Shown here one piece after another: positions 9,801-64,000 of a DNA stretch of 64,000 nt. This DNA comes from Rhytidiadelphus loreus (lineage: Eukaryota > Streptophyta > Bryopsida > Hypnales > Hylocomiaceae). The position numbers were made by a program, and so were the translations under genes. The DNA lies in contig OX344764.1 in the NCBI GenBank assembly GCA_947034895.1, forward strand, positions 54,851,348 to 54,915,347, read 5' to 3'. Within the stretch, counting starts at the first letter, position 1, and the number at the start of each line of letters is the position of its first letter. A model generated the notes under the pieces. It was not told the origin of the DNA. It did not search any database and saw only the letters and a program-made list of their open reading frames with translations.

Positions 9801-10451
9801 CGATACTCTCCGTCGCAACCTGTTTCGTAGCTTTGCACATGAGCAGGTCAGTGGATGATTGTGTGTGTGTGTGTTATCACATATCAGACCACCATGCTTT
9901 GTCAACATGGCGGATTCCCAGTCAGAGTGTCAAGTGCTCAGAATGTTGAAATCTAGAGGAGAATTTATCTCCTGGGAAATCCAATATGGAATTTGGAAAA
10001 AAATGTCCTTCAATTGGGTTTGTATATGAAAATTGGACAAATTATGCCCTTTTCTCTCCAAATTCCATATCCTAGTGACTGTATCCTATTTCACTGGACA
10101 TTGACTAGATGTAATTCTTCAAAAATTCCAAACATTTTGAGCTCAACATGTTGTCGGACACCAATTCGTCTTTGCGACTCGAGAGTCAAGCTCTCTGCTG
10201 AAGATCGATCAGTTTACTTAATATGTACAAATCCAAATGGTGTGCAAACCCAAAGGGTGCGGAAACCCACGAACCTTGCGAGGAAGGGAGACAACGGGAG
10301 CTTTCACCACAGGCGTGGTGAACATTCCGTTCTCCAGCATAAACTCCACTGGGAAACACTTGTCCGCTGCAGGAGCACTGGGAGTGGAGAGCTGTCTATC
10401 CATTCCTGCAGCACTTGGAATGGACACCTGATGCTCCGGAGGCACTGCCAT
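6880..10451 (-). CDS. Nodulin-26-like intrinsic protein (NIP aquaporin), NIP5/6/7-like
   Basis: Six-helix membrane channel for small uncharged solutes such as boric acid, glycerol or metalloids (family knowledge). Exons: 10451-10275, 9819-9598, 9320-9126, 7760-7699, 7072-6880; GT-AG sites and phases agree; 282 aa. First pore motif N116-P-A within GHISGAHVNPA, second N227-P-V-R within SISGGSMNPVR. By alignment to AQP1 the selectivity filter reads S96 (H2), I215 (H5), G224 (LE1), R230 (LE2). NIP5;1-type boric acid channels usually have A-I-G-R, so Ser at H2 is a variation. The N-terminal 59 residues are a hydrophilic exon ending LPRK just before helix 1; the C terminus is short and basic. Intron 3 carries a large hairpin repeat. 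Substrate cannot be fixed from sequence. Confidence 0.9.
8101..8848. repeat. Hairpin/foldback repeat with an extra direct arm, inside NIP intron 3
   Basis: Arms at about 8353-8590 and 8610-8848 are inverted copies separated by a loop of some tens of bases, so transcripts across it can fold into a stem of more than 200 bp. Landmarks: ACTAATGTGCCCT at 8354 pairs with the reverse of AGGGCACAGTAGT at about 8836; CATGCACCCCTCC pairs with GAGAGGTGCATGGG; AGATCTCACCGT pairs with ACCGTGAGATCTC. The arms meet in AAACAAACAAAACA / TGTTTGTTTGTTTTG. A third, diverged arm in direct orientation lies at 8101-8325. Non-coding. Confidence 0.8.
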
Positions 10452-19909: not shown

Positions 19910-22094
19910 GTGTGCCCTATGCCTGGCCTCATGAGGGGGTCATCGATGTTCCTTCACCTTCGCCCTTTTCTTCTTCGGAGATTCTTCTCGTCTGTTGCAA
20001 TGGACGCGTCAATTCTTCCTCCCCGCAATACTTTCGCTGCGCATCGTGACTTGACGCCGCTTCTTCCCCCTCAATTCCTTTCTCACGCTTCCTTTCTGAG
20101 CATCAATCGCCCATTCCGGAATCCACGGAGGTGGTATGCCTCCTCCTCTCCTGAGCCTCCATTTCCATTTCTACACCCGCATCTTGTACCGAAGGGACAA
20201 GTTGCCGAGCCTAAAATTGTGAAGGAGGATTGCATTCTTGGATCCATTCCCAAGACGAGTAATGGGACAGCCGAGTATATGCCAATTTTGGAGCAGGAGC
20301 TGCTCAAAGAAGCCGCTACGCAGGAGTTCCAGGACGCCTCGAGTGTGGACATGCCTGTTGATCCAAGAGTGCTTGGGCGTCGCCAGCGAAAGCGGAAAAC
20401 ATCCGTTCCGAAGGCTCCCAAGAGACTGTACTCCGAGGAGGAAGATTTAGGTTACATGCAGGAAGCGTTGGTAGAGGCGAGAAAAGCGGCGAAGCAAGGC
20501 GAAGTACCAGTCGGCGCTGTTCTCGTGCACAACAATAAGATCATTGCTCGGTTTCATAACCAGTAAGTATAATGCGCACCCTGAACCAGATCTTATTTTT
20601 CCTTTCGTATTGAAGAATGATCTGCTTCTTTAATTGGAGCTTTGCATCAACATCTTCAAATTTGATTGTCCGCCTTGTAATGTTGTGTTGATGTTACAGT
20701 GGGTGAGCGCAGAGTGGAGACCAGCAATGATCCCACCGCTCATGCAGAAATGCTGTGCATTCGCAGTGCTGCGGCTCAATTAGGTAGCTGGCGACTTACG
20801 GTACGTGAAGTTCCACCTATCTCACCTGTGTGATTCAACGTATTGCCCTGTATGATGTGGGTAATTTCAGGCTGGTATTTCGGAAGAATATGGAACTATT
20901 GTAATTAGGTGGTTGCTCAACGCATAATGTCCAAACGATATAGGCTCATTGCTGAGATATCTTTACTTGAAAGTTTACTTTGCAGGAATATTTACTCTGT
21001 CGTTATAATACCGTTTGATGCTCTACCTTTTAGAATTATTTATTTTCTGCTTTTGGTGTGCCCCTACTTTCTTCTGATGAGATGGTGAAATATTTCGCTC
21101 GTGTTTTCGTATAGTGTAACTGAAAGACCTCGTATTTAGTCCCTGTTGGTTTGGGAGGTTAGTGAGACTCCCTAACACTAGAAAATCGTGCTGCAGGACG
21201 TGACTATGTATGTCACACTGGAGCCATGCCCTATGTGTGCAGGAGCTATTTTGCAAGGCAGGGTGAGCGAGCTTGTCTGGGGTGCACCCAACTCGCTTCT
21301 TGGTGCAGACGGGAGTTGGATCAAGTGGGCATTCTACCATTTGTATACTCAATTTTTTGAATGCTTGTGTTCCGTGTTCACTTTCTGCTTGCCGTACCCT
21401 CGTTTTTCCCGTTCAACTTACACATGACCTTAGATTGAGGATACTAGAACCATTCGAGACCTGATGCCGTCTTCTATACTGATTCTTGTGTGACCAAGAG
21501 CAACTCATCATTCGTTCCCTGGATGTCCTTCAATTCGAAAGTTGGGTATAAGCATGACGTGGCTAAATGTTTATTGCCTAAGATCATTGAATGGAAATGG
21601 GGTGGTTGACTGTCAGTCATAGTGGTCGACAACCTCACTTTGAAATTGCATACAAGAGTCTTACATAGTGACAAAATTTGATCTCAACAGATTTGGCTCT
21701 TGTGACCAAAGATCTCTAAATCTCTATCGTGATCTCCCAGAAATTTCACTCCTACATGTGTCAAAATGCTGATAGGATGTTTGATCATGTTGATCATTTT
21801 TCATCTTTCGCTGGCAGGCTATTTCCAGCGTCGTCGACTTGCGAACAGGAACCCAAAGGCAAGGACTACCTTCACCCATTCCATAGAACCATCACTGTGC
21901 GGCGAGGTGTATTAGCTGAAGAAAGTGCTGATATTATGCAAACATTCTTCGCCATCAGAAGACTGCAACCCAAGTGTGCAACGACTGATGCTCGCATAGG
22001 TGTAAAATCTGCTCCTTGGCCAAGATCTCCTGCTTGGTTCCCACCTGCCTTTAAGAAGCTGAACTACTGGGTGCGCCGGTGGTTCCAATTTTGA
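19910..22094 (+). CDS. TADA: tRNA-specific adenosine deaminase, chloroplast TADA type
   Basis: Converts adenosine 34 to inosine in the anticodon of chloroplast tRNA-Arg(ACG), needed for plastid translation (family knowledge). Exons: 19910-20562, 20713-20800, 21197-21324, 21818-22094; 381 aa. Zinc site and catalytic residues: H228-A-E230 in PTAHAEM and P257-C258-P-M-C261. Flanking family blocks GEVPVGAVLV, LGSWRLT, YVTLEPC, GRVSELVWGAPN and LLGADGSW match plant TADA. The first 200 residues are unique, Arg/Ser-rich at the start (LLRRFFSSVA), consistent with a plastid transit peptide. The exon 2 acceptor is the AG at 20711-20712; using the AG at about 20700 would give a stop. Much shorter than Arabidopsis TADA, lacking its long N-terminal extension. 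Transcribed divergently from NIP and convergently with MLO. Confidence 0.88.
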
Positions 22095-24108: not shown

Positions 24109-27100
24109 TCACACTTGGGGTTTCTTATCTTCATCTTCGGCAGTAGCAGCAGCAGGGGGCTCCCCAATTTCTACAGTATGGAATTCATCTGAAGGGCCAC
24201 AACAGCATCCATTGTGTCAGAAAGAAATGCTTTTATAACATAGATTTGAAATAGTGTGGTTATTATTAAACTGGGAAACTAGTGTGGGTGTCACACAATT
24301 TTGCAGACATAATTTATTATGTTCTGGATAACATTCACACCAGCATTTTACACTGCTTAGTTCAATTCTCTTCTATTGCATTTTTCTACAAGAATAGTAA
24401 AAGCTCTTTTTTAATGGACTTGAATGTGAAGAAAATTAAACCTTCCCCTTGGTATTTGTTAAGAAGATTAAAAAATAAATGTATTCCAGTAGAAAAAATG
24501 CAATATAAATGAATTCACGTGAGTTACAAAAATTGAAACTAAGCATACATGATACGTTACAATGATGACCCTACTGTTCTCATACTATGTGTGAAAGATA
24601 GCGTTGAGGATATTTTTTGAGTTTTACTAGCTATTTTCCTTTAATTCCCATATTGATCCAAATTTTCAAGTACCAAGTCCGTTTTTTTCTCTATTTTTTA
24701 CTGTAAACAAAAGTTTTATTGATTTTTTCACCCAATTTTTTATGATCTTTTCAAATTGCAACCATTTTTTTACCCAATTCCACTGGCTAACAATGAACTC
24801 ACTAATGATTCTCCTTGAAGATTGGTGCAAGAGAATAATGATCAAGGTTTAAGAAGCTTATTGCCAACATACCGTGTGTTTGAGAACTCTTTTGGCCATG
24901 TGGATGCATGTGATGTAGAACGCCATTTCCATGGGCTTGCCCATTAGTTCCGTGCAATTTTACCCCACCCGGAATATCAACCGGGTGTCCGTGCCCATCA
25001 AGAGCCTTAGTGAGACCAAGGATGCCAATGTGCGGTTTTATGTGGCCCATGTCATGTGGTGCATGGACGAGCGGTCTTGAGTCTTGACTACCGGTAGTGC
25101 TCGAGTCAATGGTAGAACTTGAGTCGTGGCTCGAGTCGTGTGGCGTACCTGGAGGGGTGTGGACATGGTTGGGTTCATTGTGCTTTTTCTTCGCAGTTTT
25201 GGCCCAACCTCGGAGAGCCGCACCCGTCGACTCCGATTGGAATATGGAAAACTTCATGTGGGTACCCAACTGCACAAGAGAACAATGTCAATTACAAGGT
25301 CTCCAGTGTGTGCCAACTACTAGAAACAATATACAACCAAATTAGGTCTCTATATCACCAAATTCATAGACTAAAAAAATGAACTAGGTAATGGAGTGCA
25401 ATTGGCTAAAGTTGGTTGATTGATAAGCATGATTTGTCAACACCTCTGTAATTTTTGTTTCGCCTTTTAGTGTGCTTTTAACCCTTAAAGGACCGTCACT
25501 ATACTTTCACCAAAAACGCTCCAAAACTGCCATTTCTAGTACAAGTACCAAAATTTTGAAAAAAGACTATTTTGACATATCTAACCATAGGATCTTATAT
25601 TATATAGTATCAAAAACATGTGGTAAAAATTTCAGACATTTCTACCAGGTGGATTGCAAGATATAAGCATTCAAATTAGCTAAAATCATTTTTTTTACCC
25701 TGCAAAAAGCAAGGCAGCTGCACTTCACAAGCTCACATTTCTATGAAAAAATGACCTAAATGGTCGTGCTTCTTTGGATTTGTTTTCCTAGACAAGTTGG
25801 CCACGTGCTTGAAAAATTTCAGATCATTTGGAATAGCACAACATATAGGAAAAAAATAGTAAGTAGATAGTAGTAGAAAATGATTAAAAATACTAAATTA
25901 TTTACAATTTAAATATGGAATTGAAAATTTCCAATCCCAATGGTCAAAATGTTGTAATAATGTATCTACATCCTACAATTTTATTTCTGTCCAAAAATAT
26001 TGAAAATTGGATAAGATAAAGGATTTCAAAGTTTATTTTAGAGTGGGAAATCCAAAACTGCCCGCAAACAAAAAATCCTCATAACTTTTGACTCATTGAT
26101 CATATGGAATGATTCAAAGCTTTTTGAGTATATAAAACTCTAGAAAATCAATTCCAAATTTTTGTTTCTGAAAAAAGTGATTTTTTCTGATCTGCCCGAA
26201 CTGCCCAGCTGGAAAAAAAAGTAACATATTAGGCTATAACTTTTGACTCGTATTTCCAAATGTCATGAAATTTGGTGCATATGAAAGATATTCCTTGACC
26301 CCACATTCTACTAAAATTTCAGCCCCAAATATAAAAATCTCCGCTCCTAGGTACCTGCCCAAAATTTCTATACAACCAAAAAACATAGTCCGGTCCTTTA
26401 GGGGTTAAAGCAGGTTAGTTTCATTGTCTAATGTCTGAATTTGAGTTTTCTTGTATATATTCAAAGACTTTTTGAATGCACTTCCCATGATCAAAATTTC
26501 AAGATCTAATTATAATAAAGTAGTGAAAAGTTAAGAGTCATATTTGGTAGACATGTATTGACTGGTCCCATTAAGGATACCCTAACATCACAATGGGCTC
26601 TATTGCTCTCAGACTTTAACCACAAAGGACCACAAGACCACCCATGTGATTTCTGCAAAACACTATTTTTTGCACCCGTAGTCATTTATGGGTTCAAATA
26701 TCCTGAGTATGAATGTACCCCATGAGAAATAGTATGTTGAAATATTAGAGTGGCAAGACAGGGTTTAAATACCTGAGTGACAAGGGCATAAAGGGGCAAA
26801 GTACTGGCACTGCATAAAATCTGGATAGAAAATCTGCATGCAATCCAAAACAGTAAGTTCCATGCCAAAAACACAAAGAAACCCCCCTCGGGGGTTATCC
26901 TAGCAAACCATGTAAAGTGAGAATCAATGATAAAAAACAAAGTTTTTGTAGCAACAAACCCAATTCAAAAGAACCACAGTTGTTGAATTTCAGTCAAAAA
27001 AACTTAATACCAATCCCATACCTCTCAAGCTAAATAATTCGTGATAATAATGAAATAATAGTCATGACAATATTCAAATGGAGGGATGTGCGAAATGAAC

Positions 27101-52812: not shown

Positions 52813-53022
52813 ATAGGCTTAGGTTCTAATTGGAAATTATTCCCTAAACCAATAGTACAAAGTTTGTTCCTAAGGAGGCTAATTAAATAGGGATACTTCC
52901 ATGTTAAATTCGTACTTGGTCATTGCAATTATAGAATCTAAAGAAAAATTCCTTAATCACAAGCATGAATGTTTTCCTCTCGCATATAATCTAATTACTA
53001 AATTTCATCACTCCACTCTTAA

Positions 53023-53945
53023 CCCCTAAAGGATCGAACTGTGTTTTTTGGCTGTATAGAAATTTTGGGTAGGTACCTACAAGCAGAGATTTTCATATTT
53101 GGGGCTGAAATTTTAATAGAATGTGGAGGCAAGGAAGATCTTTCATACGCACAAAATTTCATGAAATTTGGAAATATGAGTCAAAAGTTATAGCCTAATA
53201 TGTTACTTTTTTCACCTACAAGGCAGTTCAGGCAGATCAGGAAAAATCACTTTTTTCAGAATCAAAAATTTGGAATTGATTTTGAAAAATTTATATACAG
53301 GAAAAGCTTTGAATCATTCCATTTTGATCAATGAGTCAAAAGTTATGAGGATTTTTTGTTTGCGGGTAGTTTTGGATTTCTTACTCTATAATAAACTTTG
53401 AAATCTTTTATCTTATCCAATTTTCAATATTTTTGGACAAAAAAAATTTGTAGGATGTAGATACATTATTACAACATTTAGACCATTGGGATTGTAAATT
53501 TTCAATTCCATATTTAAATTATAAATAATTTAGTATTTTTAATCATTCTCTACTACTATGTACTTACTATTTTTTTCCTATATGTTGTACTATTCCAAAT
53601 GATCTGAAATTTTTCAAGCATGTGGCCAACTTGTCTAGGAAAACAAATTTAAAGAAGTACCACCATTTAGGTCATTTTTTCATAGAAATGTGAGCTTCTG
53701 AAGTGCAATTGCCTTGCTTTTCGTAGGGTCAAAAAAATGATTTTAGTTAATTTGAATTCTTATATCTTGCAATCCCCCCGGTGGAAATGTCTGAAATTCT
53801 TACCACATGTTTTTGATACTATATAATACAAAATCCTACGGTTAGATATGTCAATAAAAGTTTTTTTTCAAAATTTTGGTACTTGTACTAGAAATGGCAG
53901 TTTTGGAGCGTTTTTGGTGAAAGTATAGTGACGGTCCTTTAAGGG
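53023..53945 (-). mobile_element. TTAA-type MITE, family A, copy 2 (923 bp), inside the motif block
   Basis: TTAA flanks at 53019-53022 and 53946-53949. Left end CCCCTAAAGGATCG, right end CGGTCCTTTAAGGG. Same length as the copy in MLO intron 15 and inverted to it. It interrupts a CTCCACTCTTA phrase that is uninterrupted in the related segment at about 56350. Confidence 0.85.
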
Positions 53946-55509
53946 TTAAAGGCCACAAGAGTAAGAACATTCTCCCAAATTATTTCTTTCTTCTTCAATT
54001 CTTTTTATCTTATATTTCTTCTTAATTTTTTAATTTTCAATTTCTCTTTGTCCACCAATTTGGTTCTACACAAGTTGGCACTGCAGATTGAGCAGCGCAT
54101 CTCCAAATTGGTCTTGAACCAAGAATAGCTTGGTTGGACTCTTAGACTTCCGAATTGGGCTGAATCACACCAACTTGATCTTTGCCTCCTAATTCAACAA
54201 CCATAGGATCTTTCCTTTCCAACTTTGGAATCATAGATGTAACACAATCAGGTTGGAAATAATTTTGCTTACGATAGAATTTGCAGTTTCTGCCTACCAA
54301 TTTCCTTTCTAATTCATAATTCTCCATTTTTAAATAATTAATTCCAATTTAGACATAAAATCAACATACTACAAAAACATTCATCAATCACCCTTGCATC
54401 TCACAAACCAACTTGGATTCTTATTAACATAACATTCACTCACAAATAATCCTATTAGGACTAAATTAATGCTGAAATACAATACATTCAAACTTTTCAA
54501 TTAGGCTTCCACAATTAAATTTAACATTCATCGTGCAGGACATACACAAACACATACACCAATTTGGCTGAGAATACATTTTCATATTAATTTCGAATTG
54601 GCAATCTAATATTAAACGTCATGCCTAGTATTCCAACTAGGATCTGCAATTGATTTCTATCAACTTGCACTAATCCTATCTTTAACACCAATCGGAATTC
54701 AAATTCCAATGTGTTACTTCATTGAACCACCGATTAGGATTTACCATCATGTTAAATTTAACTAATACCATTCTACATTCAACATCCCAACTCGGACATG
54801 ATCACACTACTACAGCCAGACATGAATCAGACCAACTTGGACACACACCACTCAAACACCATTTCTTTTTTCTCCATTGAACACACTCTCCAACTTGGAC
54901 ACAGACAACAAAGACACCATTTTTACTAACCCCCTCCACTCCTGTTGATACTTTGACTTTGACTTAACATTCCAAAAAACCAAACAAAGACACATTCATT
55001 GTAACACAAGCATGAAAGCACACAAACAATTAAAATTACACAGCACAAATTGGCTAGGACACACACTAGATTGTCGACAGCGGGTAAGAAAAAGAAAAGA
55101 GGAAAACCACTCAAATAGGAGCCAGAGAAGATGCAGACCAACTGAAACAACCAACTTGGCCAATTCGACTGACTCAACTGACATCTTCTCCAACTTGGAA
55201 TTCCAACTCGACATAAACAAAAGACAGATGCCTCTGATTTTGTCACTACAGACTGAACATCCGACTTGGCAAATAAAATAACCACATACCGAAACCGACT
55301 TGGAGACACACCATTACCAACTTGACTAAATCCAACTAGGGATGAACCAATATGGCTACAAACATCCACTAATGCCATCATGACTCCTATTTGGATTAAA
55401 AACTGGACTCAACAATTAAACTCCCAACTTGGAAAAACACTCACAAAATATCAAATTTAGAACAAAAGAAACACCATTAATTGGTAAAACACTCTGAATA
55501 GGTGAACAG

Positions 55510-56145
55510 TTGCAAGAAACACTTGCTGATTTTTGTTCAAAACGGCCATTTCACTCCTGTTCATGGATTTTGGAATAATTTTTTTAAAAATAAAACAAAA
55601 TATGCATAATGTGTAAAGCTATAAAAAAATGATATGTGCAAAAATTCAGACCTAAAATTTTTTATCTCTAAGAGTTATGCACGGTCAAAGAGGGTTGAAA
55701 AATGGAAGAAAATAGACAGTTTGAAATTTAATTCTTAAAAAATAGTGAAAAAATTCAAAAAATTCTCAAAAGAAAAAACATTTTTCCTAACTTATAGATA
55801 CTCCTTTTCACCAATTTCTACTATTGGAAAAATAAAATTGTGTTCTCTATACTAGTGCAAAGGTAGTTCTCTTTGAGCACATGTGGAGGGTGGACAGTTT
55901 ACTATTTTTAGAAATCCTTTAGTGAGATTGTGTAACTTTAGTATAAGTCCTTGTATACCAATTTTGAGATTCAAATTCTTATTTTTGGATCAAAAATAGT
56001 ACTACAAACCCCCAAAATGGCCAAGGTAGACATCCAATCGGGGGCAATTTAAAAATAGTAAAATAATTTTTTTAAAACCCAAAAAATTACTCAACATCTG
56101 AAACTACCACATTGTAGATAAGCTTTGGACATAATTATTAAATTA
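55510..56145 (-). mobile_element. Dispersed element R4, copy 2
   Basis: Inverted relative to 17634-18300. It starts GCAAGAAACACTTGCTG, contains GAGCACATGTGGAGGGTGGAC and a CCCCCAAAATGGCCAAGGTAG block matching the reverse of copy 1. It is free of CCNANTNGG motifs although surrounded by them, so it inserted into the block. Confidence 0.6.
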
Positions 56146-58319
56146 AACAAAACCCAAGGCTAATAGTATGATTCGTTCCTAGGGAGGTCTTTTCTAATAG
56201 GGATACTTACTACAACGACACTAAGACGACAAACAAGAGAACAAAACACCCATATACATCATACTTCCAACTAGAATTAACTTAATTACCTCACAATTTG
56301 TTAATTAATTCTTTAATTAATTTATTTTTATTTCATTAATTAATTTTCACTCTCCACTCTTATAACCACCAAGGATTAATTTCACCCCATTTGGCTTGAT
56401 CTTCAATCTTCAAATTGGATTCTTTTATCTTTTCACCAAATCGGAATTGGTACTGCTGCTGGTATAGGCTCAGCGGCGATCTCCCAACTTGGCTTGCTGT
56501 AACTCCCAGCCTTCTTTCTCCAACTTGGTCAAATCACTCTCCAGTAATTTTTGTCTCCAGATAGGATGCAACCAAATCTTCCAACTAGGATTCTTTAACT
56601 TTTGCTCTTAATCTTCCATCCTCACTTGTAATCCTTTCACTTCCGACTTGGACATTTCAACTACTCTTCTACCTTGAAGACTTTTTCTAATTGGATAATT
56701 TTCATCCACTCATAACTATCACTCGTACGAATTGGATCACTTCTCACAACAATCTGTTATCTCCAATTCGGTAAAACACACAGGACCATAACTCACAAAC
56801 AACTCCGAACCAAATTGGATCATACATTCAATCAGTCATTCTTTTCCAATTCGGCCAAACATCCAAACTGCCAAACTCCAACTTGGCTAACATCACATCA
56901 ACTTATTAAACATCCAAATTGGACTCATGCACCAGCATATAGACCAACAATCAGGAAACACCAATTTGCTTAAATCACATTTTATTAAGCTGAATTGGTG
57001 AACATATCACCGTTCAAAATATTGTTTCCTAATTGATTCACTCAAAATTAGCTACTGTTTCGTATTCTCCAACTTGGACACTTCAACTTCCACGCCCAAT
57101 TGGATCTAATCTCTCATAACATCTCCATTAAGAACAAACATAAAGATGCTAAATCCCAACTTGCTTCACTGCATCTATTACCAATTTGGCTAAACAACAA
57201 TCTTGCCCAAACTGGTCCCACTCCGCAAAGATTTCTTCATCATGCTTCCTTACAATAACACCCCAAATTGGACCTGCATCATCACGCATAACTCCAAATA
57301 GGATTTAACCATTCACACAGCCATCATTACGATGCTGTCTCTCAACTACCGATTTGGACTTAAGCTCTTCTGCTCCACACTCACAAATATTCCAAATCGG
57401 TTCTCTGCAGCAAACCTGCAATCACTTACAGCTAATTCAACAGGCTCTGAACTACAAATTAAAACACACCAATTAGGAAGTTAATGTTTCAGCTCCTTCA
57501 CGAATAATTCCACATTGGATCTCTGCAGCACACTCCAGCTGCTACTCACTCCGAACTACCAAATCAGACTTCACGCCCACCACTGTGGCCACCAACTTGG
57601 CCAAACAAAATTCCACTTTCTCCACAAAGACCATCACACACGCATTAATGCACACACAACCAATTAGAACTCACTTTCTCAATCACAAGCAAACATGCAC
57701 AAAACCAAATAGGAAAACATAAACGCAGCCATTCCGACTGGGACTCGCACTCGCATCTCTTGCACAGTGGGTGCCTTCCAAATTGGAAAACTCCGCCTTA
57801 AAACCTTCAACTCGGCGGTTCCCTAACCAACTTGGTTATCACCTCAAAAAGCCACAAACTGCCAATTAGGAACCTCAATCATAACCGCAACAAAACTACA
57901 AAAGAAAACTTCCCAACTTGGCATTCCTTCACGCAAATCCAACTGGGAATTAGCTGCAACCTTAACTACACACCCTAGACCAAATTGGAACACAACTGGA
58001 AGACCTCCAGACAAGACCATACCAACTCCGATTTGGAACAACACCCAGACTATTCCACTTGGAAGAACAGTCTACAATTCCAACTTGGATCTTACATTCA
58101 CGACTTCACACGTCACAGCCCAACAACTTCCACCATTGTTTCCAAATTGTTTTTTAAACTTCAAAAACTGACCCTCCAAATAGGTTAATACACACTTAAC
58201 ATTGCCAATTTGGAACATCATTCACACAAAATATAACCAAAATTATGCAAAACACACAAAAATAGACCCAAAATTTTACAAGAAAATATTCCTAATAGGG
58301 TATTTACATAGCCCCAGAC

Positions 58320-61205
58320 TCAAGGTTTTGCGTCCCCGCAAACCAACTTCTTGGGCTTTCTTTTCGCTAATCGGGCTTCAGGCACCAACTTGAGATCCGG
58401 ATTTGCCTCCTCTGCCTCCTCTGCCTCCAATCTTGCTGCCAATTTGGAACGCTCCGCCGGCAAGGTCCGCTGCTGGCGCTCATAAAAAGCCTTCACAGGT
58501 CCAGCCCGCGTCCCCAACTCTTCACAGGCGTCCAATATCATTACTTGATGCGCACCCGGCAAGAACTGCATGATGCACATTAACTCCAAAGCTCTCAGCC
58601 GTCTCGCACCATGGTAATGTAACTTGGAAAAGATTTCCATGTCCGTGCTAAGGCGCGCTCCAATTCGGTAATCCACCACGAACTGATAGTCGTGGCACAA
58701 ATAGGCTAAAATCCCTGCAAAGACACTTGCTCAGAAACAAACAGGGTCCCGATGCGCAGGATGCTCCAAAGAAAATTTAGTATAAGCCTGCACACAACTT
58801 TCCGGGTTCTTGTATGAACTAGGAATTCTTGGCCAATTATACCAACGTGAATCCAATTTGGCGCGGCTGGACCACAAGTACCGCCTTGGGCAAGGGCAGA
58901 AACGCGGATCCGCAGCCACCGAATTTGGAGGTGTGGGCGACCGTGAAACTCGCTCCGTATGATCCATGAGGTCCATAGCCACAATTGGGGGTCTTCTTTT
59001 TCCGCGATGATCCTGACCGATCCATAGCAAAGCCTCCCAACTCGGAAATGGTATATTGTCAATCTCTTCAAACAACTGGTCGTAATTCCCCAAATAGCGA
59101 TCATCATTTGTTGACCGGATAGAAGGCAATGGAACAGACCATGACACCCATTTGGACAACAACCCCGACGGCACGATCGATTTATCTCCTACTTGAGGAC
59201 GGGGAAATGTCAACTCAACAGTAAAATCCAAATTCGGAATTACTGAGAGTGCTCCGGCTTTCCTCTTAATCTCCAATCGCGCCTTTGTGTTCTCATACTT
59301 GTACACATACACCGTTGGATGCACGTCCATCAGCTGGCTCCGAGTTGCTCTATTTTGGACGTTTTGCACCAGGTCTATGAGCCAACTCGATTCATTGAAG
59401 CTCCTCTCCAACTCGGTTATGGTGCGTATCCACTCCGTTGACAACGCAGGACCTTTCATCTTAGTACTCCTAGACGCTGTCTGGATAGCTGTGGACACTC
59501 CTTCCAACAACCTTGCTCCCGAGCTCAAGCGCCTCTGACCTATATAGGACGCGGCCACCTGCCTCCTCTTCGACAGAAGATCTTCCAATTCGGAATAAAA
59601 CAACAAGCAGCGAGCTCCATAGTCTCCAACCAGGGTAAAGGCCGCCAAATTGTCTTCTAAAACCACATCACCTCGACCGATAATCTCAGTGAAGAAGTTC
59701 TCACACTTCAATTGGATTGCCTGTGCCCAAATTGTTTTAAATCTCGATTTGGAGAGATACTCCTTCAACCCCAAGCCTGTATACACGAAAAACACCTCTC
59801 TCTCGAAGGCATATGCAAACTCGATGTTGTCCGTCGGAGGAATCCACTCGAATAGTGCTTCTAGATTCTCCACATGAAGAACCCGCTGACGTTTCCTTGG
59901 TACCAACTTGACTTCCTCCGCAGAACTCTCTCGACTTGCTGAAGCCTTGCAATGCCTTTCCACCCTGGCCAACTCTTTCTCGAAACCCAGCAAGCCTTCT
60001 TCCTTATCCGATTCGTCCTCGGGTGTATGAACGCCTTCCAACTTGGTCTGCAGCTCAAGGACCTTCTGCTCCAAAGTCGCCACTTTACTCTCTGCAATGC
60101 GTCGCAAGCTGGACTCCAATTGGATTTTCTTCTGGATTTTATCGAATCGTTCTTGCAAATGCGCCAATTCTTCGCGCACATCTTGATATTCGGCTGCCAT
60201 TTGAACTTCGTACGCTGTCCGTTCCTCCTTCACCAACTCCAACTCGTCCTTAACCCTCTGACATTCATTTGTCAATTTGGTGTTTGCTACTCGCAAACCA
60301 GCTACTTGTGATGGGTCAAAATCATTCAACTCGGATAGCGTTTGAGCCAATCGCGCCTTCATCTGCGAGACTGAGCGGGCTGGCGCTTCCAAATCGGTAG
60401 CATTCCCCGAACTTGTTGAAACGCCTGGATCTTTCTTGGGCTCCCGATATAAGTCGGGTAATGCTGCACAGGTGACCTCTACCAACTCGGAAATAAGCTG
60501 CGCCCTCCGCAACCTACCTTCTGGCTTCTTCTTGAACTCCGCGACGAAAGCATGTAGTCTTCTGGAAACAAACACTGCCCAATTGAGCACGACTCCTTGC
60601 TGAACCGCTACCACCACTAGGAGATTCTTCTGTGATATATTCTGTGCTGCGGGCTCCAACAGCAGACATTGCACCACCAATTTGATCCACGGATGCCAAC
60701 TCGGTTTAATCCACTGAAACTCACACACCGAATTGGCTCTCTGCTCTTCCGTTACATCCTCCATGAAACATTCTTCCACCGAATAGGTAACTGAATCTTG
60801 AATGCTCTTCACTGACACCCCCGATTTTGGAAGCTGGAAGACCTGTGCAATTCTTTGCGGATGCAGCTCCACCGATTCGCCACGCACACAACTCTTCCTC
60901 TCCGCCACCGAATAGGCCATTACAAAAATCTCGAGTCGATTAGGATCGAGTTTTGCCCACCGTCTTCGTCCTTCCACAAACATCCACAAACCCGCATCTT
61001 GGAGTTTCAACTGCTGCGTCTGCTCCCACTTGGTATCTTCCAATTTGGTTGCAGCTTCAAACAAGAAGTCCGTCCGAGGCACCTCAATTGGGATGTCCCC
61101 CGCTTCTCCCAATTTGGGTTTCTTGTCGATATGCTCCGCTGGACACACCAATTTGGTCTCCTCCTCTTCCGCTGGAGCTTTTCCTTTGCCTATTTGCGCT
61201 TCCAT
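58320..61205 (-). CDS. Retroelement coiled-coil protein with one in-frame TGA
   Basis: From the ATG at 61205 (MEAQIGKGKAPAEEEE) the frame runs 824 codons to a TGA at 58733-58731, then stays open in the same frame for another 135 codons to the stop at 58320. N-terminal part: basic/acidic leader, then LEIFVMAYSVAERKSCVRG and ELHPQRIAQVFQLP, similar in layout to the N-terminal domain of plant transposon and Tat/Ogre extra-ORF proteins (F-x-x-x-V-R-G ... I-x-x-x-x-x-LP). The middle is a long coiled coil (about 300-430: VREELAHLQERFDKIQKK, LEQKVLELQTKLEG). The C-terminal half is unrecognised. No zinc knuckle, protease or RT is visible. It could be a gag-like or extra ORF of the gypsy element whose integrase lies upstream on the same strand, or a separate copy. 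CCNANTNGG motifs cross it in several frames. Activity unknown. Confidence 0.55.
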
Positions 61206-61745
61206 CGCACCTGCAGACCACAATCTCACAATCTCTCGGCAATGCTCCAATTTGGTTTAGAAATTCCTCACTTCCCACTCGGCAGTGCGCTCCCTCTTAA
61301 CTCTGCGCTCTCCAATTTGGACGTACTTTCTCCACAATTTAGTTATACTCGACTTGAAAACCTAACCCTGAAATACACACGACACCAAAACCAACACAAA
61401 CCAAAACCACGCCCTCACAAGGATTTCAACAGAATAGAAACTCCAAATTGGCACCCACGCTCACTGCGCCCATTTACAACGCCCACGAGCCCAACTTGGA
61501 AAACAGACACACAAACAAAGAAACCGACTCGGCAAACATGCGAGCCTCCGCACCCGTTCCAATTTGGCTTCTTGCTATTTGCACAACCACCTCGAAGCTC
61601 CAAGTTGGTGATTCTTACACCAGGTTCCCCTCTCCGATTTGGTTTGCCGCGAACTGGCGGCTTGTCATCATTCCCATTCGAAATGATACTTTGCTCGAAA
61701 TGATTCTTTGTCACTTCTTGTCCAACTTGGAGACGTCTCTTCCGA

Positions 61746-63261
61746 TTTGATAATCATTTTTTATTTTCTAATTATTTTTTCTTTTTTCTTTTTTCTTTTT
61801 TCTAGATTTACACTTCAAGCTTTCTTGGTGAAAAAGATTCTTGAAATGTTTTCTAATAAACCGACATTTATGCTTGATATTTGTTGGTTAAACTTAATAC
61901 ATGAAAATATGACTATGTGGATTGTTGATAGTGAAGCCTAGGAATATATATATTCTTTCTTTTGAAATAAAGAATATTTGTTTTATTATCTCTAGCTTAA
62001 ATGGTCTTACTAACGGGCAGAGAGAATAAAGATATGGAAATATTATTCACACATGGATATTTACATCTTGTTAAACTTCCTAGTGGTGTATTTATTTTCC
62101 TTCCATTGATGCTACAAGTGATTCTATTTATTCACAGCATATTTAGATAGATTTTTTTTTGCAATGCCTTACACTGACTTAATTTGGTAAGTTGTGGCAC
62201 CTTTAATGCTGGGGTTGAGGCTCAACTAACTAACCCTGTTGACATGATATATTGACGATATGAGATCATATGGGGTGGATTTGTTCATTGGACCTTTATT
62301 TCCTCATGAGCTGTTTTGCTCCCTTATAAATGGCTTGGCTTCCGCATGTGTAAGCTGACGTGATATGGGATCTAATTTCCCTAACTTCATGATTTGACTA
62401 AATTGAAGTTATTCCCTCCTGCTATCACCATATTACTGGGTTCGGGCTGGCAACTTCAGTCTCTCGCATTCTCAGCATTCTCTGCTAGCTACCCATCACT
62501 GCAGGCCTATTGCAATTTCAGGATAGCTCAAGTAGATTGAGTTCTTTTTCTCTGTATTCCTTGACTCGAGATTGGAGTTCTGTATCAAGGATGGCTTCGT
62601 CACAGTCTACTCCTAACAGTCAGGTTTCGTGGTTTATAATTTGTGGATACAATGCATGGACTTTTATTGGTTTATTTTGTTCTTTTCTAAGTTGTTTTGT
62701 GTGAAAACGATGACAAGTGACACAAGGCTGAAGACACCTTGCATACACACTATAACTAACTACTTGTTTGTTGTGGTGTATGGATGCAGGTGAGGCCTTT
62801 GTCCTCATAAAACGACTTAGATTCTTATGAATTGGTTTTATTCCTACATGTCTATTTATCCATATTAAGAAAAAAGTTTGTATAGTGAGATGGAGATTTT
62901 GTTGGACAAATTATCTTGTTCCAAGCTTATAGATTTATAACTTTTACTTTTACATGAAAAAATGAATACTATCTTATGGTATTTGGCATGTTTAAAAGTT
63001 ATTCTATATTCTTTTTTATATAGAGTGGTATCTATATAAATATTTATTTACATATTTTGACCTTAGATTAACAAGCTAAGGCCTATGAAGGGAATGTCAA
63101 ATTCTTTTGTCCATGGTGTGAAAATCATGTTTAAGAAATTTGCTTGCTTCTGCATAGACAGGAATAGATCAGTGCTCTTGTTACAAGAGGTGTTCCAGAA
63201 AAGCCTTTTTCTTTCTTCATAAAAGACTACCCCCCAAATTGAAAATGCCGCCCTCGGCATC
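61746..63261. other. Motif-free AT-rich spacer between the retroelement ORF and integrase
   Basis: CCNANTNGG density drops to zero at 61745 and a pyrimidine-rich, AT-rich sequence begins. No coding exon was recognised. Just below the integrase stop, minus strand, is a purine run (TTTGGGGGGTAGTC, about 63230) that could be a polypurine tract, in which case 63230 downward would be a 3' LTR. No matching second LTR is in the window. Confidence 0.4.
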
Positions 63262-64000
63262 TCAAACAAAATATGGCTTAAGCCGATAACCATTAATCCT
63301 AGTTGGAAGTAAATTGCCCTCAAAATCCTTAAGTTGCAAAGACCCATTAGGATTGACATCTACAACCTCATATGGACCTAACCAATGCATTTGCAATTTT
63401 CCCGGGAATTTGAAAAAACGGCTATCATAAAGCAACACTAAACTCCCAACCTTGAATTCCTTAGGACGCAATTTGGAATCATAATAAGACTTACGCCTAT
63501 TCTGGGTGGCTAGGGTATTTAAATAGGCCTCTCGCCGCTTTTCATCAAGGGCTTCCAAATTGGTTAGCCGCACTTGCAAACTTTCGTCATCTCCCAACTT
63601 GTTTTCGATAGCCACTCTTAGGCTAGGAATTTCAAATTCGATTGGGAGAATGGCCTCTTGGCCGTATACTAATTGGAATGGGGAAAACCCTGTAGTGCCT
63701 TTGTAGGCGGTTCGGTAAGCCCATAAAGCACTCCACAGTTTTTCATCCCAATCTGTTGCTGCACCACTAATAGTCTTAGTTAGGATTTTACACAATATCC
63801 CATTTGTCTTTTCGGTTTGCCCATTAGCACGCGGGTGGTAAGGGGCCGTTTTACGGTGTTTAATTAAAAACCTATTTGTTAATTCCTCGATCGTGGCATT
63901 TAAGAAATGTGTGCCCCGGTCACTAATTAACTCCTTTGGGCACCCAAATCGGGAAATAATGTTTTCATAAAGAAAACGTGCCACCGTTTTTGCATCATCA
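63262..64000 (-). CDS. Ty3/gypsy integrase, C-terminal part (truncated by window edge)
   Basis: Open from the right edge to the stop at 63262, at least 245 residues. It has the second catalytic Asp in ELISDRGTHFLN and the catalytic Glu in YHPRANGQTEKTN of the DDE core, then WALWAYRTA-type sequence, SPFQLVYGQEAILPIEFE and a C-terminal domain with KVGSLVLLYDSR and FPGKLQMHWLGPYEV. The last block is typical of the Tat/Athila (OTA) branch. HHCC finger, first Asp, RT and RNase H would lie beyond 64000. The visible frame is uninterrupted, so the element may be young. It carries at least three CCNANTNGG motifs (near 63298, 63557, 63943). Confidence 0.9.
   Translation of the reverse strand, partial: DDAKTVARFLYENIISRFGCPKELISDRGTHFLNATIEELTNRFLIKHRKTAPYHPRANGQTEKTNGILCKILTKTISGAATDWDEKLWSALWAYRTAYKGTTGFSPFQLVYGQEAILPIEFEIPSLRVAIENKLGDDESLQVRLTNLEALDEKRREAYLNTLATQNRRKSYYDSKLRPKEFKVGSLVLLYDSRFFKFPGKLQMHWLGPYEVVDVNPNGSLQLKDFEGNLLPTRINGYRLKPYFV

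What the first reader, a model, noticed from the sequence alone, without database searches (positions are those of the whole stretch)
52815..61745. A retroelement block saturated with a 9-bp palindrome CCNANTNGG
Seen: roughly eighty exact CCNANTNGG sites in about 7.4 kb after removing two insertions. The fixed letters are symmetric (CC.A.T.GG) and the three variable positions are restricted mostly to R, H and H. Chance expectation for six fixed bases is about one per 4 kb, and the 52 kb to the left has only a handful (for example near 9980, 17782, 23433, 29739). Spacing is irregular, so this is not a tandem satellite. Inference: a target motif for a dimeric DNA-binding protein, accumulated throughout one element family. 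Precedent: VANDAL elements of Arabidopsis, where VANC anti-silencing proteins recognise a short motif that accumulated across the element. The sequence and element class here differ, so this would be an independent case.
Basis: partly seen in the sequence, partly recalled or inferred. Interest (0 to 1): 0.95.

Follow-up and report, generated by a model that had tools for sequence, protein, structure and literature searches.

The report
Retrotransposon families tagged with private palindromes
A plant retrotransposon carries dozens of copies of a short DNA palindrome that selection has kept in place, and related families in the same genome carry different palindromes, as if each family's own extra protein reads its own address label.

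Summary
Confirmed, and larger than first reported. CCNANTNGG occurs 79 times in 53,901-61,800 against 7 in the first 53 kb. The block is a young Ty3/Gypsy element on the minus strand (LTRs 99.86% identical, TSD CACAT) with an extra sense gene (ORF2) between integrase and 3' LTR, plus a neighbouring motif-rich fragment. ORF2 relatives form a large family in this genome. I examined 54 copies. In 43 (one weak) a palindrome stands out, and it follows the ORF2 clade: CCNANTNGG, CCNATNGG, ANCNATNGNT, GNCNANTNGNC, TCNANTNGA and, once, GCTTNAAGC. Ten copies, in two clades, show none; one has a tandem array instead. Other classes' palindromes stay low. Motif letters are conserved at the DNA level (synonymous third positions, amino acid matched). 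Most sites turn over between distant copies while many remain, and sites keep about 26 bp apart. Best explanation: ORF2 is a dimeric DNA-binding protein coating its own family's DNA, most likely a VANC-like anti-silencing or self-activation factor evolved independently in LTR retrotransposons. Binding and function are inferred; the palindrome code and its selection are shown. The PMC searches listed no description of it.

The parts
56108..56112 (.). Target-site duplication CACAT (second copy at window-equivalent 72187-72191)
   Evidence: Read from the flanks printed
56113..58308 (-). 3' LTR, 2,196 bp, TG...CA, 33 CCNANTNGG sites (15 per kb)
   Evidence: 99.86% identical over 2,202 aligned bases to window-equivalent 69985-72186 in L061; density
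58320..58730 (-). Continuation of ORF2 in the same frame after one stop codon (136 aa), 2 sites
   Evidence: relatives L039, L041 and L044 carry this part in one open frame
58731..61250 (-). ORF2, 839 aa: weak PF20167-like N-terminal part, coiled-coil region, conserved C-terminal domain with five invariant Cys/His; 16 sites
61251..61800 (-). Leader between pol and ORF2, 9 sites (16 per kb)
61801..63205 (.). Stretch with 0 sites, absent from the copy read as L035/L006; taken as a later insertion
63262..63999 (-). C-terminal part of integrase; pol and gag continue beyond the window (L037, L061)
   Evidence: PF00665 below its curated cut-off; retroviral and Ty3 integrase matches in the PDB; RVT_1 and zf-CCHC in L037
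53954..55440 (.). Separate motif-rich fragment, 18 sites; a 189-bp stretch is 74% identical to copy L015

Best explanation
The element encodes, between integrase and the 3' LTR, a protein (ORF2) that dimerises through its coiled coil and binds a short palindrome scattered through the element's own DNA, densest in the LTRs and the ORF2 leader. The array marks the element as self. The bound protein most likely keeps it transcribable by displacing or counteracting silencing, as VANC does for VANDAL transposons. ORF2 lineages have changed their recognition sequence (half-site letters and 0 or 1 central base), and their elements have accumulated the new sites. SHOWN: the sites, their lineage specificity, their co-segregation with the ORF2 tree, selection beyond the protein code, turnover with many sites kept, and site exclusion.
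For: Density. A gapped-hexamer scan without a preset motif gives CCNANTNGG as the top pattern in all but three of the loci of that class (the three exceptions L022-L024 put an overlapping form first by 0.1), and in other lineages either the palindrome or an overlapping form of it. Private codes: each class has its own motif at 3.2-6.7 per kb, the other four classes' motifs at 0.03-1.0 per kb, except TCNANTNGA at 1.74 in the GNC group. Tree: 7 changes for 7 labels on 44 rows, the least possible being 6; shuffled mean 23.7, as low in 0 of 200. Later fetch: of six further copies five proved 65-98% identical to the ORF of L039, and all five carry CCNATNGG at 12-19 per 3 kb. Selection, window copy against L006: in ORF2 (71.8% identical) 12 sites coincide of 16 and 20, where 15.0% of random 9-mers keep all six letters, fixed letters 86.1% and free letters 66.7% identical; in the first half of the LTR (64.9%) 11 coincide of 18 and 14, random 9.3%, fixed 82.4%, free 68.5%. 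Motif letters on third positions, amino acid matched: above expectation in 10 of 10 pairs (four share the window copy), e.g. 33 of 36 against 19.3 expected. Spacings of 9-25 bp: 7 observed, 34.0 expected (ratio 0.21; lowest of 60 control patterns 0.69); GNC lineage 4 against 16.1 (0.25; lowest control 0.58). ORF2 is under constraint (dN/dS 0.09-0.60 in the 15 of 19 pairs where it could be computed) yet changes faster than integrase.
Against: No DNA-binding domain was recognised: Pfam and PDB sequence searches gave nothing certain, both AlphaFold models are poor (pLDDT 34.5 and 49.1) and Foldseek gave no match with E below 3. Two clades, 10 copies, have ORF2 but no clear palindrome in the 3-4 kb read. 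Co-segregation with ORF2 does not exclude another element protein that shares the same history; gag and pol trees were not made. Privacy is not strict: the CCNATNGG copies are also rich in the looser core CNANTNG (11.1 per kb in L039 against 4.5 in the rest of the window) and have 2-4 CCNANTNGG per 3 kb. In CCNANTNGG elements the centre is G far more often than C on the coding strand (33 to 1 in the block; 35 to 9 and 32 to 9 in others), more than base composition explains, which a purely symmetric reader does not predict. In one search fixed letters were more alike than free ones in 13 of 15 pairs, equal in one and lower in one (L005/L011). The window copy's ORF2 has a stop codon.
Confidence: 0.6

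Rival explanations
1. The palindromes bind ORF2 but serve transcription or enhancer function, nuclear positioning or copy counting, not removal of silencing.
For: Densest in LTR and leader (15-16 per kb); palindromic repeated motifs are described beside Sirevirus LTR promoters (passages of PMC2829016).
Against: Sites also run through gag, pol and ORF2 coding sequence at 4-6 per kb, more than a promoter should need.
Confidence: 0.2
2. The motif acts in RNA: a lineage-specific packaging or dimerisation signal read by Gag or by RNA-RNA pairing.
For: Strand bias of the central base; the genomic RNA would contain all these sites.
Against: Little excess of complementary letters at the mirrored free positions: 146 seen, 136.1 expected in CCNANTNGG; 59 against 60.0 and 88 against 77.3 in GNCNANTNGNC. 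The centre of an odd palindrome mismatches itself. An exclusion of about 26 bp has no evident reason in RNA pairing.
Confidence: 0.1
3. A host DNA-binding protein reads the motifs and the elements exploit or suffer it.
For: Most classes share a C-N-A half-site core.
Against: Four codes each seen in four or more copies, and largely private to an ORF2 clade, would need a host factor each; a silencing factor would select for loss of sites.
Confidence: 0.07
4. By-product of tandem duplication, base composition, coding constraint or alignment of recent copies.
Confidence: 0.03

Closest known systems
VANC proteins of VANDAL (Mutator-like) transposons, Arabidopsis
   Same: Element-encoded protein; short motif at high density inside its own family; related families have different motifs; densest in non-coding parts (Results section of PMC5735166 read; abstract of PMC10398659).
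   Different: Host element is a Ty3/Gypsy retrotransposon; no DUF1985 or DUF287 listed for ORF2; the motif is a dyad palindrome, not YAGTATTAY or AGTTGTCC; sites are dispersed rather than in tandem repeats and also run through coding sequence. Binding unproven here.
[quoted passage not shown]
   Same: Same position and strand; a sunflower Athila 3' ORF has partial PF20167 similarity and a predicted nuclear signal (passages of PMC11728184); PF20167 is weakly matched here, below its curated cut-off (5.2e-7 in L040; 0.042 in the window ORF).
   Different: No motif system is described for those ORFs in the passages read; the lineage of this element was not placed on a reference RT tree.
Retand antisense TRP28 ORFs
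   Same: Extra ORF between pol and 3' LTR with predicted DNA binding (abstract and passages of PMC11963269).
   Different: Antisense, different domain; tandem repeats but no palindrome code in the passages read.
Sirevirus palindromic repeated motifs
   Same: Palindromic repeats in a retrotransposon, upstream of the TATA box in the LTR and beside the env gene (passages of PMC2829016).
   Different: Copia elements; clustered boxes mostly with a CGG-CCG core; not described there as element-wide or tied to an element protein.

Membership tests
VANC anti-silencing proteins | DUF1985 / DUF287 domains | tested here: not met
   Neither is among the 22 Pfam families listed at E up to 10 for the window ORF2 or among the 21 listed for five members at E up to 1; weak matches may be filtered out
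VANC anti-silencing proteins | Carried by a Mutator-like DNA transposon | tested here: not met
   LTR pair, TSD, gag zinc knuckle, RT, integrase
VANC anti-silencing proteins | Family-specific short motif at high density in the element | tested here: met
   43 of 54 copies
VANC anti-silencing proteins | Motifs in tandem repeats of non-coding regions | tested here: not met
   Dispersed, coding and non-coding; exception L070
VANC anti-silencing proteins | Protein binds the motif and removes methylation | not testable with these tools
   needs EMSA, DAP-seq and bisulfite data
Ty3/Gypsy LTR retrotransposon | LTR pair, 5-bp TSD, gag-RT-RH-INT order | tested here: met
Athila lineage | RT/RH/INT phylogeny within Athila | not tested
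   no reference elements were at hand
Athila lineage | Sense extra ORF 3' of pol | tested here: met
Athila lineage | PBS of tRNA-Asp type | tested here: inconclusive
   The stretch after the 5' LTR reads TGGCGCCGTTGCCGGGGA (pieced); its assignment to tRNA-Asp and to Athila is recalled

The most novel reading that the evidence does not exclude
LTR retrotransposons evolved, independently of VANDALs, a radiating protein-DNA self-recognition code: the gene in the env-like position is a dimeric factor that coats its own family through 60 or more dispersed palindromes and shields it from silencing; lineages diverge by changing half-site letters and spacer, so that five or six largely private systems coexist in one genome.
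Probability: 0.5. Interest if true: 0.95.

Novelty: new variant of a known kind. Interest (0 to 1): 0.88.

Why it matters
The function of extra genes between pol and the 3' LTR of plant Gypsy elements is open: one review calls an env-like role in plants controversial (section 4 of PMC7264820), and PMC12844716 says it remains to be investigated whether Tork and Athila lineages encode such ORFs and whether these shape the elements' epigenome (passage). Here the sequence alone names the likely target of one such protein family and supplies matched protein-site pairs, so specificity, co-evolution and anti-silencing become directly testable. It would also give a set of different DNA-binding specificities within one protein family.

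Full report
OBSERVATION. The motif is real and extreme. CCNANTNGG occurs 90 times in the window against a shuffle mean of 10.3 and a largest of 22; 79 of these lie in 53,901-61,800, seven in the first 53 kb. The same pattern read backwards (GGNTNANCC) occurs 0 times in the LTRs, leader and ORF2, 4 times in gag-pol and 11 times in 1-53,953. It is not a tandem array.

ANATOMY. The host is a Ty3/Gypsy retrotransposon on the minus strand. Its 3' LTR is 56113-58308. The matching 5' LTR lies outside the window (99.86% identical over 2,202 bases), with CACAT as target-site duplication on both sides. With a recalled plant rate of 1.3e-8 this dates the insertion to roughly 50,000 years. A gag zinc knuckle and RT (L037) and integrase (63262-63999) precede an extra sense gene, ORF2 (58731-61250, 839 aa). 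Its frame continues after one stop codon to 58320. A stretch at 61801-63205, absent from L006, carries no motif. Site density: LTR 15.0 per kb, leader 16.4, ORF2 6.4, gag-pol 4.3-5.4. A further fragment at 53954-55440 has 18 sites. The genome is 407 Mb with five large scaffolds (lengths, about 395 Mb together). Rhynchospora breviuscula, with five chromosomes of about 370 Mb in all (passages of PMC10954556), was considered but not shown.

THE FAMILY. ORF2 finds 67 matches in the genome (54 of 250 candidates scored), the ORF of L040 finds 93 (56 of 360), that of L041 57 (55 of 258). These lists overlap and are lower bounds. I looked at 54 copies: the 30 loci make 25 copies after joining pieces of one copy (20 with CCNANTNGG, 5 without), and 29 more came (6; 16; 6; 1). 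By a gapped-hexamer scan without a preset motif the classes are: CCNANTNGG 20; GNCNANTNGNC 10; CCNATNGG 6; ANCNATNGNT (often CTATAG) 4; TCNANTNGA 2, one of them weak; GCTTNAAGC 1; no clear palindrome 10; and one (L070) with a 38-bp tandem array carrying AGTCATAT instead. In many copies outside the first class the top pattern is an overlapping form of the palindrome rather than the palindrome itself. Upstream pol is of the same kind in the GNC lineage (64.8% identical over 437 residues, L062) and the CCNATNGG lineage (70.6% over 761, L063), and the palindromes run through it too: 16 GNCNANTNGNC and 12 CCNATNGG in 3.2 kb each.

CO-SEGREGATION. On a maximum-likelihood tree of the C-terminal part of ORF2 (44 rows) the seven labels need seven changes where six is the minimum; shuffled labels need 23.7 on average and never as few in 200. 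Near-copies help such a result, as the tool warns. The two classes without a central base (CCNATNGG and ANCNATNGNT) form one clade (100/99), though long branches meet there. Two separate clades, one beside CCNANTNGG copies and one beside GNC copies, carry no clear palindrome. Of six copies fetched afterwards, five proved relatives of L039 (65-98% identical) and all five carry its CCNATNGG; four of them are close copies (91-98%) and one, L067, is distant (65%). Per-kb counts show that codes are largely private: CCNANTNGG 6.57 in its own lineage and 0.03 in the GNC lineage; GNCNANTNGNC 6.74 and 0.10 the other way round; the main leak is TCNANTNGA at 1.74 in the GNC lineage. The CCNATNGG copies are also rich in the looser core CNANTNG.

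SELECTION. Between the window copy and L006, 32 sites coincide of 41 and 43 in the segment from leader to early LTR (74.4% identical; 23.4% of random 9-mers keep all six letters; fixed letters 86.9%, free letters 71.8% identical). This includes the leader, which is 96% identical. Without it: ORF2 12 of 16 and 20 (random 15.0%), first half of the LTR 11 of 18 and 14 (random 9.3%). In ORF2, where synonymous sites are near saturation (pS 0.71, dN/dS about 0.09), motif letters on third codon positions are kept 90% against 52% expected. Restricted to codons with the same amino acid and compared with the same codons elsewhere, all 10 pairs tested, from three lineages, exceed expectation (z 1.5 to 6.9; the pairs are not independent). 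At greater distance (49-64% DNA identity, 13 pairs) 15-41% of sites coincide against 2-8% by chance, so most have turned over while the copies still hold 15-34 sites in the aligned part. This is selection for having many sites, at DNA or RNA level, beyond the protein code.

SPACING. Sites avoid each other: spacings of 9-25 bp number 7 where 34.0 are expected after jitter by up to 100 bp (ratio 0.21), and 4 against 16.1 in the GNC lineage (0.25). Among 60 other patterns of similar frequency in the same DNA the lowest ratios are 0.69 and 0.58. CCNATNGG shows 0 against 6.0; ANCNATNGNT has too few sites to tell. Spacings of 32-54 bp are in excess (81 against 44). A footprint of about 26 bp is the simplest reading, and points to a protein on DNA.

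ORF2 is the best candidate: its tree carries the code, it has a long region that matches coiled-coil families, a weak PF20167-like N-terminal part (5.2e-7 in L040, below the curated cut-off), and a C-terminal domain with five invariant Cys/His residues (C785, C819, H830, H833, C838 in 24 of 24 representatives chosen from 44 rows) that could bind zinc. It evolves under constraint but faster than integrase (pN 0.33 against 0.02 between the window copy and L008). No DNA-binding fold could be assigned. Four relatives in the protein collection (34-75% identical over 37-100% of the query, 3,108 candidates) suggest that the family is not confined to this genome.

WHAT DOES NOT FIT. Ten copies in two clades have no clear palindrome in the 3-4 kb read. 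The centre of CCNANTNGG is oriented: G over C on the coding strand 33 to 1 in the block, and 35 to 9 and 32 to 9 in other copies. GCTTNAAGC as a dense code rests on one copy.

COMPARISON. It works like VANC of VANDAL elements (Results section of PMC5735166): an element-encoded factor, a dense private motif, related factors with different motifs. It is not a VANC: no DUF1985, another element class, palindromic dispersed sites. Most plant elements of the Ogre/Tat/Athila superclade carry extra ORFs and large non-coding regions (section 9 of PMC6317226). The meeting report PMC12859917 (passages) mentions unpublished VANC structures. The listings of searches of the PMC library (8-20 papers shown of 26-309 found) show no paper that describes such a code in an LTR retrotransposon; subscription papers and preprints were mostly not covered.

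Noticed in passing
L070 (G000:C2:61634900-61637899): A relative of L068 has 38/76-bp tandem arrays with ATATGACT...AGTCATAT units, closer in style to VANC target repeats than to dispersed palindromes.
   Followed up: partly
L068 (G000:C3:67930183-67933182): The deepest ORF2 relative read carries 11 exact GCTTNAAGC in 3 kb, a different palindrome without the CNA core; one copy only.
   Followed up: partly
L029, L031-L034 and L047-L050, L052: Two ORF2 clades without a clear palindrome in the stretch read; they may have lost the system, carry it elsewhere, or use another kind of signal.
   Followed up: partly
window 53954-61800: Coding-strand centre of CCNANTNGG is almost never C (33 G to 1 C in the block), though the rest of the site is nearly symmetric.
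   Followed up: partly
window 57100-61300 against L006/L036: ORF2 and the first half of the LTR are diverged together (56-82% identity) between flanks at 95-97%, a sign of recombination between subfamilies.
   Followed up: partly
window 53501-53953: Repeat, 93.8% identical to window 25474-25925; about 440 bp of it are 77% identical to L039.
   Followed up: no
window 19910-20566: Exon of a cytidine/adenosine deaminase-like gene (PF14437, PF00383).
   Followed up: no
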